Shown here piece by piece: positions 59,290 to 64,000 of a stretch of 64,000 nt of DNA. Made by a program: the position numbers and the translations under genes. The DNA is from Bifidobacterium asteroides (GTDB lineage Bacteria > Actinomycetota > Actinomycetes > Actinomycetales > Bifidobacteriaceae): contig NZ_WKKW01000001.1 in assembly GCF_009683175.1 (NCBI RefSeq), positions 744,001-808,000 on the forward strand, given 5' to 3'. The notes below the pieces were generated by a model. It did not search any database. It saw nothing but the letters and a program-made list of their open reading frames with translations, and was not told the DNA's origin. Position 1 is the first letter of the stretch. Each line of letters starts with the position of its first letter.

Positions 59290-60285
59290 TGAATAAGGGC
59301 TGTCAGTTCGGCAGCCAGAGGGGAGGTGGAAAGTGCCATGCAGACAGACACCGACCACCCGGCTCGGGCAGGATGGTGGCCATGCCGCCGTCGGTTGAGG
59401 CGGCAGGGTCCGCCTTGCTCACCATGCAGAAGACGTCGGGGGCATACGCCCGAGCAGTCAGGGTCAATCGGTAGCCGCACTCCTCGGCCTCAATAGAGGC
59501 TTCGAGAGAGTCTTGCTGGAGGACCCGGCGACGACCCTGGCCGGATTGTAAATGACCCTAGCAAAACCTGGCCGGTCGGGGCTGAACACCAGAATCTACT
59601 GGGCGGGGCCACAGAAGGTGACCACGGCGGCCTCCAGAACCACCTGGGCCTGCTCCCCTGCCGATCAGTGACCCGGGTGATTTGAGTGGCCAGAACGGTT
59701 CCATCCAAGCGGCGGCGCTCCACCCCCCACTGACCCTCCCAGGCCCGACGGATATCGTTGACCATGACCAAGGCCAGCTGGTCGGTGATGACAGGCATGC
59801 CAGCCCAACTGTACTCAGCCCGGTAGGCCTCTGAGACCTCGGGCTGAATGGAGGCTAGACGAGGAGCGATGAAATCGCGCAAGGGCGAAGCAGAGGGGCT
59901 TGCGATGCCCGTCATAGTCCACCGCCGCCCAGGAGATCACCGGCCAGTCGTCATTGAGCTGCCAGACCAGGGTGCCGGCATTCACTGGCTCCAGCGAGCG
60001 CAGGTACTCCACCCCGAATCGGATAACCTATGCCTGCTGCATCTGACAGGCCCAGTGCCAGTCCACAATGCCCTCCCAGCGGTCACTGGGAATCAGCCAG
60101 GAATGCGGCCCATCCGAACGATGGCCGTTGACCACGCCGCCGTAGCTGATGTCATAGAAGTCACCCGGAGTCAGGTGGGAACGCATGCCCCGGGAGATCT
60201 TGATGTTGCCAGCGATGGCCTTCTGATGGACCAGTATTTGGGTGCCGGAGGGGTCCAAGGGGCTGTCATGGTCCAAGCCCCCTCA
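59290..60285 (-). pseudogene. GH2 beta-mannosidase, degenerate
   Basis: Consecutive minus-strand segments in changing frames give the C-terminal half of a GH2 beta-mannosidase: QKAIAGNIKISRGMRSHL and VDWHWACQMQQA, an in-frame TAG (60028-60030), then FGVEYLRSLEPVNAG and GTLVWQLNDDWPVISWAAVD, KPLCFALARF, and after frame changes YAPDVFCMVSKADPA near the end. The N-terminal sugar-binding and barrel-start regions are not found in the 288 bases before the tRNA gene. With at least one nonsense mutation, several frameshifts and a missing 5' half it cannot be functional. It lies just upstream of the GH29 gene on the same strand. Confidence 0.82.
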
Positions 60286-60573: not shown

Positions 60574-60649
60574 GCCCCTCTGGCTCAATGGTTAGAGCAG
60601 CGTCCTTTTAAGTCGTGGGTTGTGGGTTCGAGTCCCACGGGGGGCACCA
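60574..60649 (+). tRNA. tRNA-Lys (anticodon UUU)
   Basis: A 76-base cloverleaf. Acceptor GCCCCTC pairs with GGGGGGC, the D arm is GCTC/GAGC, the anticodon loop CTTTTAA gives anticodon TTT, and the T arm is GTGGG-TTCGAGT-CCCAC. CCA is encoded. The anticodon stem has a T-T mismatch at the 30-40 pair. The DNA changes to AT-rich just after the 3' end, as expected when a tRNA gene serves as an integration site. Confidence 0.95.
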
Positions 60650-60693
60650 ATTACATTAAGCCTGGTGCTTTATGCGTAAACTGGACAAGCCAT

Positions 60694-60718
60694 TGGAGGC
60701 ACCCAGTGGAGGCACCAA
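60694..60718 (+). repeat. Direct repeat resembling the tRNA-Lys 3' end
   Basis: TGGAGGCACC occurs at 60694-60703 and again at 60707-60716; the second copy continues as GGAGGCACCAA and differs by one base from the tRNA end GGGGGCACCAA. These may be worn remnants of integration events at the tRNA gene. Confidence 0.4.
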
Positions 60719-60770
60719 GGTAAATTCACGAGTGCAGACTACGCTTCACTAATAGACTTTCTACTCGTCT

Positions 60771-61009
60771 CTAAAAATTTACCAGTTGGACCATTACTCG
60801 TTCACCGATAATCGCTATATCACCGTTCTGACTCTTCTTGGCCCATAAGTCTTTTATGATACGCGGGCTACGGTAGTAAATCGCCTCGCCAACATCACAG
60901 GTGGATTGCTCTTTGAATCAGCCGGAAGAGTCTTGAGACTAATCCAAAACGCGCCATCCTTACTGACAACACACTCTAGACACTCCTTAACAAGCAGAAT
61001 GTATATCAT
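60771..61009 (-). pseudogene. Possible decayed gene of unknown family
   Basis: On the minus strand one frame reads MIYILLVKECLEC and GAFWISLKTLPADS; after a one-base shift another reads EAIYYRSPRIIKDLWAKKSQ and NGDIAIIGERVMVQLVNF to a TAG. The two fit as one frameshifted chain of about 80 residues. No family is recognised and this may be chance. Confidence 0.3.
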
Positions 61010-61369
61010 CGGCCTATTCTTTTAACATCGCAACCCCATCCATATAGTTCTAAAACTGCAGTGAAATGTTTGGATGGACGGCATCTTAAAGCAAGGTGAC
61101 ATAGGTCAAATTGCCGAATTCTGCATTGCGCCCTACCTCGAGTCCAAGATCGGGTGTTAGCTAGCCTAAAATGACACGGTGTCGTAAGCAACGGCTACAT
61201 TGATACCTCAAAAGACACAGCGCACGCCGTGTGGGAAGCAATGGCAGTCATATTCCCTATACTCGATAACGGACATGCCGCGCTATAGCTAAATAGAGAG
61301 TATGCTTTCCTCGCCGATAGAAACTATCTATCCATGGCCGTTACGAGCGGCGGTTTGCTCATATAGCCT
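61010..61369. other. AT-rich gap without a convincing gene
   Basis: All six frames are broken by stops at short intervals. One minus-strand frame of 61 codons (61006-61191) has no ribosome binding site and an arginine-rich, unnatural composition. I regard this as decayed island DNA. Confidence 0.45.
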
Positions 61370-61687
61370 CTATAAACATGACCCTCTGCAACATTTCCAC
61401 TTCTGCAAGGAATACACCCGTCCATCCTGAATGGTAATTCGTATAGATAGATGCAGAATCTGAAGACGGTCTTGAACACGCCTCAGAGTTACACTCGGCT
61501 TTCCTAAAGATTTGTATGCTTCTCTTTTGCAATTAATCCAGACTTTATGACTGTAGAAGCTTCAAAACGGGAAACCCTTTTATAGCCAACAGGATACCGT
61601 TTAAGAACTTTGATGTTACGAATAGAGCTATACGACTCGCCGACAAGTAAAGACAATTTCTAATTCTTCAATAAGTCTATCAAGCAT
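61370..61687 (-). pseudogene. Decayed gene divergent from the nucleotidyltransferase pair
   Basis: Three frames read in succession on the minus strand: MLDRLIEELE from an ATG at 61687; KLSLLVGESYSSIRNIKVLK, RYPVGYKRVSRFEASTVIKS and GLIAKEKHTNL to a stop at 61504; then SLGKPSVTLRRVQDRLQILH and TIQDGRVYSLQKW to a stop at 61370. The composition of each piece is protein-like and they abut end to end, so a single gene with two frameshifts is plausible. It could have encoded a small DNA-binding or regulatory protein, but I do not recognise the family. Confidence 0.4.
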
Positions 61688-61706
61688 TAAGGAACCCGAG
61701 CTTTGA

Positions 61707-62264
61707 ATGAAATTATCCCTCGGCGAGAGTACTATACATGATATGACACTTCCGTCACAATCAGAGTTGATTCAAAAAGGATTGTTACCCTATCGCGGCC
61801 CTGGAAAACCGTATGAATGCAACGATACCGAAGTTGAATCAACTTTTCTATTTAGCGACAGACGCTTTGTTTTATGGCAAGCTTTTAAATTATGGCGCAA
61901 AGAATGTCAATCAACTTTCGGCGACTGTAGATTTCTTGTTAACGGCAGTTTTGTGACATCTAAAAAGGAACCCCACGATATTGATGTAGCTTTTCTGGTC
62001 AACAAGACCAATTTTGAGAACAGTGATCCCCAGTCCATACTTCAATTGACTACTCAGCCCCGCATGCTTGACCGTAAATACCGTGTTCAACCTTTCGGCG
62101 GAATGCTTGACGCATTCGCTGTAGCATGCAAGGATGTCACCAATGCGACGTTTGATGATCCTGCTCTTAAATCGTGGGACGAGCTTTGGAGCGCAGTAAA
62201 CAAGAGCAAGCACTATCTAAACACCGACGAGACCAATAAAGGTTATTTGGAGGTGAAGCAGTAA
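61707..62264 (+). CDS. Nucleotidyltransferase-like protein (DUF6932-like)
   Basis: A 185-residue soluble protein with a minimal nucleotidyltransferase motif: NGSFVTSKKEPHDIDVAFLV, that is Gly80-Ser81 followed after nine residues by Asp91-x-Asp93, the metal-binding pair. Asp135 in GGMLDAFAVA may be the third acidic ligand. The N-terminal LPPYRGPGKPY-like segment (here GLLPYRGPGKPYECN) is a feature I associate with DUF6932-type proteins, a loosely characterised family. The start is 61707 (AAGGAA 12 bases upstream) or 61743. Its stop overlaps the start of the next gene (TAATG), so the two are coupled. The gene is clearly AT-richer than the core. Small nucleotidyltransferases of this kind act as toxins, antitoxins or nucleotide-signal synthases in defence modules; which applies here is unknown. 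Confidence 0.7.
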   Translation: MKLSLGESTIHDMTLPSQSELIQKGLLPYRGPGKPYECNDTEVESTFLFSDRRFVLWQAFKLWRKECQSTFGDCRFLVNGSFVTSKKEPHDIDVAFLVNKTNFENSDPQSILQLTTQPRMLDRKYRVQPFGGMLDAFAVACKDVTNATFDDPALKSWDELWSAVNKSKHYLNTDETNKGYLEVKQ

Positions 62265-63256
62265 TGAAATCAATAGCCTCAGCCAGAGAAGACGATCGCC
62301 AGCGGAACTTTACAAGCATGGTGAACAGCATTCTAACGATAGAAAATGATACGACGCGCATGTTGGCTTTGGACAACCTACATATGGCGGTACAAGGTCT
62401 ATCTGAGGAGCAATTGTTAATTTCTTTAACGGACCCAGAGCAGGCAAAGGCCGTCATTCATATCAATGAACCAAAAACCGAGAATCATGCTGCAACAGCT
62501 GTTAATGTCGGCAAATTCCTGCAATTGATATCAAAAACGGTAAATGAAGTAGCAAAAACTCAGCTACGCGCACAACGGAGGTCTCCACAACTGCTTGTTA
62601 CAGCCTTCACGCCGGGCTCGCTCGCTGTGACGATAGAGGCGCCTAGAGATATTACTGATAGCCGTGACATATTAGAAAATGTGCAAGACGCTGAAAGTGT
62701 CGAGAGCACTGCTTTAAAAAAAGTGTCTATGGTTCTTACAACGGCCTCGGACATAGATGGCGACGACAATAATTCAACACTGGACGCACAATTGTCAGCA
62801 CTATCACCGAAGGCAAGGAAGACACTCAATTCACTGGTAAATACCGTGAAGAAATCAGATTGGACTTTAAGCGGCATTATCATCCAAAAGAATATGAAAC
62901 CGATGCAGTTAAGCTTCACGCAGGATGGCGTTACACGAATAATAGAAGCAATGGAAGCGAATCCCGAAAAGCCAGAAGAGGAAGAGTTGCACGGATACTT
63001 AGATGGTTATAAACGCAGTGAAGGCATACTGTTCGTAAACCCAGCTGCTGGTGACACAAAAAGCTCATATAAAATAGCGGTTAGCGATATGAATCTCATC
63101 CAGCAAGTTGCGATTTATGCTACACATAGCGAACAAAGATATGTGATCAGAACAGATGTTTACAAGACACTCGACAAATTAGGCGATGTCAAACGAACTT
63201 CGCGACTACTAAAGAGCATAAAGCCCGAGAAGGTGTATACCCAAGGTACCCTTTAA
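62264..63256 (+). CDS. Unknown 330-residue partner of the nucleotidyltransferase-like protein
   Basis: A soluble, acidic protein of 330 aa without signal peptide, membrane span or a motif I recognise. The N-terminal 50 residues look helical (RNFTSMVNSILTIENDTTRM). A middle part around residues 95-130 has alternating hydrophobics (RRSPQLLVTAFTPGSLAVTI), suggesting a beta-rich domain. A helical segment LSPKARKTLNSLVNTVKKSD follows, then a second beta-rich part (GYLDGYKRSEGILFVNP), and the C-terminus resembles a substrate- or nucleic-acid-binding beta unit (EQRYVIRTDVYKTLDKLG). Its ATG lies within the stop of the upstream gene, so the pair is made in a fixed ratio. AT-rich codon use marks it as acquired. 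Intact reading frames in otherwise decayed DNA suggest selection. Confidence 0.65.
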   Translation: MKSIASAREDDRQRNFTSMVNSILTIENDTTRMLALDNLHMAVQGLSEEQLLISLTDPEQAKAVIHINEPKTENHAATAVNVGKFLQLISKTVNEVAKTQLRAQRRSPQLLVTAFTPGSLAVTIEAPRDITDSRDILENVQDAESVESTALKKVSMVLTTASDIDGDDNNSTLDAQLSALSPKARKTLNSLVNTVKKSDWTLSGIIIQKNMKPMQLSFTQDGVTRIIEAMEANPEKPEEEELHGYLDGYKRSEGILFVNPAAGDTKSSYKIAVSDMNLIQQVAIYATHSEQRYVIRTDVYKTLDKLGDVKRTSRLLKSIKPEKVYTQGTL

Positions 63257-63544
63257 AGACTCGTTTGCCGACTTTTCTCGTAACTGTATATCATTTTAAG
63301 ATTAGTGGCGTTATAAGTTCATAGGCTCCCGTGATTTTGAGGCAGATAAAGAGTTTGCAATTACTAGGGCCGTCATGAACACATAATGCCGCTTTTGTCT
63401 CGACCTCTCGTTTTAACGATTTGTGATACCCTATAAAATATATTCAACAATAACTGTAGATTTGCTATATCACTCATCGGTTGTGCCTGTACCTTGTAAT
63501 GAGGCAAAGAGCCTACTCCTTTCATGCCTTAACGGACTATAAGC
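63257..63544. other. AT-rich gap without a convincing gene
   Basis: No frame longer than about 40 codons and no recognisable protein segment was found on either strand. The right end precedes a small GTG-start frame. Confidence 0.4.
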
Positions 63545-63700
63545 GTGCGTAAGATATTATCCCCAGTTCACGCGGAGCAATATCTCAAGCCTCCCCTGGA
63601 TATGTGGGTCGGGGAAATATGGCCTTACGATATACCGACTTTCATGGCTGTTTTGCCGGAAAAGAACACGCTAGTTAGACAGTCTTATAAATTCCAATAA
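63545..63700 (+). CDS. Possible small protein or 3' gene remnant
   Basis: From a GTG the frame reads 51 residues with natural composition: VRKILSPVHAEQYLKPPLDM, WVGEIWPYDIPTFMAVLPEK, NTLVRQSYKFQ, then TAA. There is no clear ribosome binding site, and the frame is closed by a stop five codons upstream, so it may be the tail of a decayed gene. I do not recognise the family. It converges on the toxin relic. Confidence 0.35.
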   Translation: MRKILSPVHAEQYLKPPLDMWVGEIWPYDIPTFMAVLPEKNTLVRQSYKFQ

Positions 63701-63709
63701 GCAGCATTA

Positions 63710-64000
63710 TTGACATTATTATCGAAGAGGGCTGTATCGTGTCTATCAGGCTCTGATTGGCAAGGAACTAGTCGGGGATAAAGTTGCAGGACTGCTTCCA
63801 GTAACAAGTCTCGGTGCTGCATGCAAAGGCTTCATACACAGCTGCATAACCTTGCAGAATATGCATCTAATGACACGCCTCCAATATATGAATCAACGCT
63901 TCGGAATTCTCTGCTATCAGATCAAGCACCTCCTCGACCGACTCCAATGGGACGTGCCTGCAAGCCACGCGCTTCAGATCTCTCGCGAAAGCACCAGTGG
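63710..64000 (-). pseudogene. YafQ/RelE-type toxin relic, running off the right edge
   Basis: Entering from the right edge, the minus strand reads TGAFARDLKRVACRHVPLES, VEEVLDLIAENSEALIHILE and ACH, then a TAG (63867-63869). The same frame goes on as MHILQGYAAVYEAFACST. This matches the layout of YafQ-family toxins, in which the helical N-terminal half is followed by a block of the form RRHxMHxLxG; the stop replaces the residue between H and MH. After a frame change DRHDTALFDNN (near 63714-63750) resembles the family's C-terminal RTGTHDELF block. The expected antitoxin would lie outside the window. The gene is non-functional unless the stop is suppressed. Confidence 0.6.

What the first reader, a model, noticed from the sequence alone, without database searches (positions are those of the whole stretch)
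61707..63256. Coupled nucleotidyltransferase-like gene and unknown 330-residue partner in a decayed island
Two AT-rich genes sharing a TAATG overlap are intact in about 3.4 kb of otherwise broken DNA downstream of a tRNA-Lys gene. The first has the GS-x9-DxD metal site of a minimal nucleotidyltransferase; the second matches no family I know. Small nucleotidyltransferases paired with a second protein occur in abortive-infection, toxin-antitoxin and nucleotide-signalling defence modules. Retention of both frames beside decayed genes suggests they are selected, so the pair could be an undescribed defence or toxin-antitoxin module.
Basis: partly seen in the sequence, partly recalled or inferred. 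Interest (0 to 1): 0.7.

Follow-up and report, generated by a model that had tools for sequence, protein, structure and literature searches.

The report
Phage-borne nucleotidyltransferase gene pair, defence candidate
Two overlapping bacterial genes turn out to be a distant version of a predicted but unproven anti-phage pair that temperate phages often carry right behind their repressor gene, which makes it a good candidate for a phage-exclusion system awaiting a laboratory test.

Summary
Two intact, overlapping genes (61707-62264, 62264-63256) lie in a 3.18 kb AT-rich insert (60648-63831) directly behind tRNA-Lys. The rest of the insert has no open frame above 63 codons and no Pfam match. Gene 1 is DUF6932 (PF22014, 2e-20) with an intact nucleotidyltransferase-like acid triad (D91, D93, D135). 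Gene 2 passes no curated cut-off, but a held-out iterated profile and a profile-profile comparison (hhalign 96.8%, 2.4e-10, 276 columns) put it in the family of PADLOC's PDC-M63B. The pair is a divergent member of PDC-M63AB, a predicted, unproven defence system. In the class-wide search 8 of 9 partner genes have DUF6932 just upstream, the ninth a fragment. In E. coli lambdoid, Erwinia, Gordonia and Mycobacterium phages the pair lies directly behind the repressor, the rexAB position in the coliphages. The window's tRNA-Lys site is a variable hotspot that in related genomes carries AIPR, KAP-NTPase, DUF6602 or GmrSD genes. Best reading: a lysogen-expressed phage-exclusion pair, with the nucleotidyltransferase probably as effector. 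Against it: a published deletion test in E. coli found no evidence of defence, and no structure could be obtained here.

The parts
60574..60649 (+). tRNA-Lys (TTT); its 3' end is the left boundary of the variable insert
   Evidence: ARAGORN; homology to 4 same-genus genomes stops at 60647 and to a fifth at 60649
60648..63831 (.). Accessory insert, 3184 bp, 43.7% GC; only the gene pair is recognisable in it
   Evidence: homology to G010 and G007 resumes at 63832, to G009 and G016 at 64846 and 64860; GC and open-frame statistics; no Pfam hit in insert fragments
61707..62264 (+). Gene 1: DUF6932 minimal nucleotidyltransferase-like protein, 185 aa (or 173 aa from ATG 61743); acids D91, D93, D135
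   Evidence: PF22014 2e-20; PDC-M63A 3e-9; phrog_9194 1.1e-8; conserved residues
62250..62255 (+). GAGGTG, likely ribosome-binding site of gene 2 inside the end of gene 1
   Evidence: read by eye from sequence
62264..63256 (+). Gene 2: 330-aa partner, divergent PDC-M63B family protein
   Evidence: no curated family over cut-off, no PADLOC hit, phrog_3243 0.0014; held-out profile scores the E. coli PDC-M63B proteins 1.5e-15 and 1.6e-13; hhalign 96.8%, 2.4e-10

Best explanation
The pair is a mobile, probably prophage-derived phage-exclusion (abortive-infection) module of the PDC-M63AB kind. Shown: conserved two-gene unit; intact nucleotidyltransferase-type acid triad in gene 1; family membership of gene 2; placement of relatives behind phage repressors; location of the window pair in a hotspot that holds defence-type genes in sister genomes. 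Inferred: in a lysogen the pair is co-expressed with the repressor; the partner binds gene 1's product and keeps it silent, or senses an infecting phage; on infection the nucleotidyltransferase transfers a nucleotide to a host or phage target (tRNA or protein) and stops the infection. In the window the parent element has gone and the pair remains as cargo of a tRNA-Lys hotspot.
For: Unit: partner profile hits in 10 of 394 class genomes; one is spurious (antisense to what reads by eye as an acyl-CoA dehydrogenase gene); of the other 9, 8 have full DUF6932 immediately upstream and 1 a C-terminal fragment. All 5 plasmid or phage records hit by gene 2 have DUF6932 just upstream, two of the five being near-identical. 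61 of 89 DUF6932 loci collected have the partner next (most were fetched through gene 1). Gene-1 and gene-2 distances correlate at r=0.795 over 34 loci; best of 5000 permutations 0.397. Active site: DxD in 51 of 55 paired DUF6932 and all three acids in 50 of 55, exact duplicates removed. Position: E. coli mEpX1 and PhiR30_1 and Erwinia phage 59 have cI-DUF6932-partner, upstream of N where N is annotated, as lambda has cI-rexA-rexB-N; the pair is also directly behind the repressor in M. abscessus prophages and Gordonia phage Holliday. Integrase profile hit in the flanks of 12 of 55 paired loci. Neighbours of other copies include BREX and type IIG/IV restriction genes. Window hotspot: relatives carry AIPR, KAP NTPase, DUF6602 or GmrSD behind the same tRNA. 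DUF6932 without the partner is followed in 6 of 13 loci looked at by an XRE-HTH gene and in 3 more by the N-terminal part of that gene alone, as expected if DUF6932 is the toxic part.
Against: The authors of a PDC-M63AB deletion in E. [quoted passage not shown] 4 of 55 paired DUF6932 lack DxD, so catalysis is not universal. Phage_integrase matched only 7 and HTH_3 6 of 119 neighbours scanned, and many other families shown are ordinary (25 of 124 families shown). In 4 of 13 partnerless loci looked at the next called gene was something else. The iterated gene-2 profile also hits two LAPAL-family proteins that have no DUF6932 beside them. No structure model; no PDB sequence relative of gene 1 and none significant of gene 2. 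Nothing here shows expression, toxicity or protection.
Confidence: 0.55

Rival explanations
1. Toxin-antitoxin addiction pair with the roles reversed: gene 2 is the toxin and the nucleotidyltransferase is the antitoxin that modifies it, as MntA modifies HepT.
For: Precedent of a minimal nucleotidyltransferase antitoxin that modifies its partner toxin (PMC7641770, start of abstract in a listing). Overlapping genes, plasmid and phage carriage.
Against: Gene 2 has no HEPN or other toxin match in the libraries scanned; DUF6932 also occurs without gene 2, beside an antitoxin-like HTH gene; some paired copies lack the acids.
Confidence: 0.15
2. Lysogeny-maintenance or host-regulation genes of temperate phages with no defence role; the chromosomal copies are leftovers.
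For: Position next to the repressor and integrase; no evidence of defence in the E. coli deletion test.
Against: The pair is also found on plasmids and chromosomes with no repressor-like gene next to it, sometimes near defence genes, and stands alone in the window's insert.
Confidence: 0.15
3. Ordinary toxin-antitoxin stabilisation module in which DUF6932 is the toxin and gene 2 the antitoxin, without an anti-phage role.
For: Parallel architecture of DUF6932 with an XRE-HTH protein; an Xre-MNT pair is a reported type II system in S. suis (PMC8406773, passages; its relation to DUF6932 was not tested).
Against: At 330 aa gene 2 is larger than a typical antitoxin (recalled), and no DNA-binding domain was detected in it.
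Confidence: 0.15

Closest known systems
PDC-M63AB (PADLOC-DB candidate defence system)
   Same: Same two genes in the same order; gene 1 scores PDC-M63A 3e-9; gene 2 is a profile relative of E. coli PDC-M63B over 276 columns.
   Different: Gene 2 scores no PDC-M63B model at E<=1, so a PADLOC scan would probably miss the pair; carried in a tRNA-Lys insert without a recognisable phage repressor.
lambda RexAB exclusion
   Same: The coliphage relatives occupy the place between cI and N that rexA and rexB take in lambda.
   Different: No sequence relation of gene 2 to RexA (hhalign probability 0.1%); RexB is recalled to be a membrane protein, unlike DUF6932.
HepT-MntA (HEPN/MNT) toxin-antitoxin
   Same: Two-gene unit with a minimal nucleotidyltransferase (recalled, and PMC7641770 listing).
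   Different: Partner has no HEPN match.
DUF6932 with an XRE-HTH protein (HigA-like, name recalled)
   Same: Same Pfam family for gene 1; intact DxD in 28 of 28 partnerless copies.
   Different: Shorter DUF6932, different HTH partner.
LAPAL family NF053583 / PDC-M32A
   Same: Weak similarity to gene 2 (NF053583 0.003); the iterated gene-2 profile hits two of three LAPAL loci (6.8e-6, 0.0017); E. coli PDC-M63B hits PDC-M32A 3.4e-5.
   Different: No DUF6932 found in those three loci; their next genes read by eye as a transposase or an HTH-metalloprotease.

Membership tests
DUF6932 (PF22014) | Score above the curated cut-off (27 bits) | tested here: met
   74.1 bits, 2e-20
Pol-beta-type minimal nucleotidyltransferase | hG[GS]-x9-Dh[DE]h plus third acid (motif recalled) | tested here: met
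   G80 S81, D91, D93, D135
Pol-beta-type minimal nucleotidyltransferase | Fold | not tested
   Gene-1 structure job never accepted; only sub-threshold matches: Polbeta 0.18 for the window and DNA_pol_B_palm 0.044 for an E. coli relative
PDC-M63AB | Gene 1 matches PDC-M63A | tested here: met
   3e-9; PADLOC's own cut-offs not seen
PDC-M63AB | Gene 2 matches a PDC-M63B model directly | tested here: not met
   No PADLOC hit at E<=1
PDC-M63AB | Gene 2 homologous to PDC-M63B proteins over most of its length | tested here: met
   Held-out profile 1.5e-15 and 1.6e-13; hhalign 96.8%, 276 columns
PDC-M63AB | Genes adjacent, same order | tested here: met
PDC-M63AB | Anti-phage activity | not testable with these tools
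   Published E. coli test found no evidence of it
RexAB | RexA homology of partner | tested here: not met
   hhalign probability 0.1%
HepT-MntA | HEPN partner | tested here: not met
   No HEPN hit at E<=1

The most novel reading that the evidence does not exclude
DUF6932 is a widespread effector nucleotidyltransferase used in two separate architectures, with an XRE antitoxin-like gene or with the PDC-M63B partner. The second is a phylum-spanning family of lysogen-expressed exclusion systems, in the rexAB position of coliphages, of a chemistry not yet described.
Probability: 0.4. Interest if true: 0.75.

Novelty: new member of a known kind. Interest (0 to 1): 0.5.

Why it matters
It links a family of unknown function and a bare database code (PDC-M63) from E. 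coli lambdoid phages to Mycobacterium, Gordonia, Rhodococcus and the window's own genus. It shows a repeated position behind phage repressors and a second partner architecture. It names residues and laboratory phages with which the function can be tested directly.

Tried and rejected
A single-protein scan of viral contigs with gene 2 gave no relatives; alignment A2 was too diverse for the search for related loci. PDB sequence searches found nothing for gene 1 and nothing significant for gene 2. 'Phage structural protein' as the function of gene 2 is not accepted: the family name says 'putative' and the direct hit is partial, but distant homology to that family is likely. The NLBH match (7.5e-4, 19.6 bits, below its cut-off of 24.6) was not followed. 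RexA homology rejected. No exact repeat of 11 bases or more of the tRNA 3' region (L105:4601-4690) was found elsewhere in the 19 kb held, so att sites are not shown for the window. Frames from the loci fetched up to then gave, outside the pair, one weak hit in the flank (8e-4, at 63983-64111) and none in the rest of the insert. Loci dropped before the count: L001, L007, L008, L025, L026, L029, L031-L034, L037, L038, L042 (same places or near-duplicates), L016 (spurious), L036 (not confirmed). further dropped L043, L044, L045, L059, L063 and L071 as duplicates. For the neighbour scans 119 of 125 neighbours were given; loci in which the gene caller found no gene 1 are not in them. Overlap lengths (47 of 51 overlapping, 33 of them by 4 bases) are biased: the script chose starts nearest to the stop.

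Full report
Check of the observation. Gene 2 has a good ribosome-binding site within the end of gene 1 (by eye). In 2000 first-order resamples of the insert the longest frame was 200 codons, 4 of 2000 reached 185 and none 330. Gene 1 is DUF6932 (2e-20). Gene 2 passes no curated cut-off in Pfam or NCBIfam and has only weak hits there and in PHROGs, none in PADLOC.

The insert. Five of 27 genus genomes share the left flank of the tRNA in the search listing. Homology to them runs to the end of tRNA-Lys (60647, or 60649 in one). It resumes at 63832 in G010 and G007, at 64846 in G009 and at 64860 in G016; G019 has only short matches further on. The window's insert is therefore 60648-63831. The same interval, to the point where homology resumes, is about 0.3 kb in G007, 5.3 kb in G009, 5.5 kb in G010 and 10.4 kb in G016. 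Behind the same tRNA, G016 and G009 carry AIPR and KAP-NTPase genes, G010 a DUF6602 gene and G019 a GmrSD-type gene; three of the ten frames scanned had no Pfam match. Matches of 33-41 bases to the tRNA 3' end lie further on in G016, G007 and G019; they could be att copies or other tRNA genes, which I did not settle. G007 carries its own pair at a different place, an AT-rich stretch beside tRNA-His next to what reads by eye as an endolysin remnant. In the genus, DUF6932 is in 2 of 27 genomes and gene 2 in the same two.

A conserved two-gene unit. A six-sequence profile of gene 2 hits 10 of 394 class genomes; one hit is spurious, and of the other nine, eight have full DUF6932 immediately upstream and one a C-terminal fragment. 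Five of five phage and plasmid records hit by gene 2 have it too, in R. gordoniae as a frame not listed in the record. PF22014 hits 20 of 394 class genomes with 21 matches; 16 matches have the partner, 4 do not, 1 was not confirmed. Over all collected loci 61 of 89 with DUF6932 have the partner next; 61 of the 62 loci with the partner have DUF6932 before it, the other (L013) a fragment, but most loci were fetched by gene 1. Distances of the two genes correlate at r=0.795 across 34 loci, against at most 0.397 in 5000 permutations; the nearest relative is the same in both genes for 16 of 34. Beyond this family, the iterated profile also hits two LAPAL-family proteins (6.8e-6, 0.0017) in loci with no DUF6932, so the strict pairing holds for the PDC-M63B family and not for the wider superfamily.

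Relation to PDC-M63. The E. coli phage pair scores PDC-M63A 1.8e-41 and PDC-M63B 7.5e-45. Gene 1 of the window scores PDC-M63A 3e-9; gene 2 scores no PDC-M63B model. The six-sequence profile alone did not find the E. coli partners (7.8 for one, nothing for the other). After iteration on loci that exclude the E. coli ones it scores them 1.5e-15 and 1.6e-13; its 62 hits under 0.05 are exactly the 62 partner frames. Profile-profile comparison gives 96.8%, 2.4e-10 over 276 columns. The window pair is therefore a divergent member whose second gene PADLOC does not recognise.

Position. In mEpX1, PhiR30_1 and Erwinia phage 59 the order is cI, DUF6932, partner (Erwinia scored 2.6e-25 and 4.2e-42), in the place lambda uses for rexA and rexB; there is no RexA homology. 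M. abscessus prophages and Gordonia phage Holliday have the pair directly behind the repressor, with an integrase close by. A profile seeded with three repressor-like genes also finds one directly upstream in L009, and a second HTH type lies upstream in L004, L012 and L069 (L048, L004 and L069 were among the seeds, picked by eye). An integrase profile hit lies in the flanks of 12 of 55 paired loci, with flanks of 1.5-6 kb. Other copies are chromosomal. Among 119 neighbours scanned, 7 match Phage_integrase and 6 HTH_3, and PADLOC matches include BrxD/BrxHI, a type IIG enzyme and two type IV enzymes; only 25 of 124 and 25 of 113 families were shown, and many are ordinary genes. Near-identical mEpX1 pairs occur in 18 of 5426 E. 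coli genomes.

Active site. Among 55 paired DUF6932 (exact duplicates removed), 51 keep DxD and 50 keep all three acids; L012, L028, L030 and L035 lack DxD, and L028, L030, L035 and L087 lack the third acid. All 28 partnerless copies keep DxD, 26 of 28 the third acid. Of 13 partnerless loci whose next gene I looked at (L019, L020 and the 11), 6 have an HTH gene, in most with a MITNExxY-like N-terminus, 3 have that N-terminus alone and 4 something else. Pfam confirmed the HTH in L019 and L020 only; the rest is by alignment and eye. The other 15 partnerless loci were not examined in this way.

Mechanism. I favour an exclusion module expressed with the repressor, with the nucleotidyltransferase as effector and the partner as regulator or sensor. 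The choice of effector rests on DUF6932 being the constant element of two architectures, one of them antitoxin-like; it is inference. The main counter-evidence is the deletion test of PDC-M63AB in E. coli NILS69, where no evidence of defence was found (PMC12409345, two passages); [quoted passage not shown] The same passage calls the system never previously verified. Two M. abscessus prophage papers were seen in passages only; neither holds the word nucleotidyltransferase in its main text (PMC8092301, PMC9934374).

Literature limits. 'DUF6932' gave 0 papers and 'PDC-M63' 1 in the held library; the other searches showed no study of this pair in the titles and abstract starts listed. Preprints and most subscription papers are not held, so a description there would have been missed.

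Noticed in passing
window 63870-64000 and beyond (L105:7871-8355, - strand): RelB antitoxin-like frame (1.5e-6) and a YafQ toxin-like piece (0.014), in flank shared in part with G010 and G007.
   Followed up: partly
L105:8845-12681 (just past the window): 1278-aa helicase-like protein (by eye) whose DNA matches four sister genomes at 90-94%; it bounds the hotspot on the right.
   Followed up: no
L088, L093, L098, L086, L082, L083, L090, L019, L020: DUF6932 without the partner is followed by an XRE-HTH gene or by its N-terminal part alone: a likely separate toxin-antitoxin architecture.
   Followed up: partly
L012, L028, L030, L035: Paired DUF6932 proteins that lack the DxD acids, a possible pseudoenzyme branch.
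   Followed up: no
gene 2; L107, L108: Gene 2's profile hits LAPAL-family proteins of transposase-linked loci without DUF6932; the E. coli relative also hits PDC-M32A, suggesting a wider superfamily.
   Followed up: partly
L003:5334-5882: DUF6932 frame with no listed gene in the R. gordoniae plasmid table; the table is known to be incomplete.
   Followed up: yes
L141:2487-3927: In an Enterobacter asburiae plasmid record both genes of the pair are in pieces.
   Followed up: no
window 59490-60276, - strand: Broken frames that look by eye like a glycoside hydrolase remnant, next to an intact fucosidase-like gene; names recalled, not searched.
   Followed up: no
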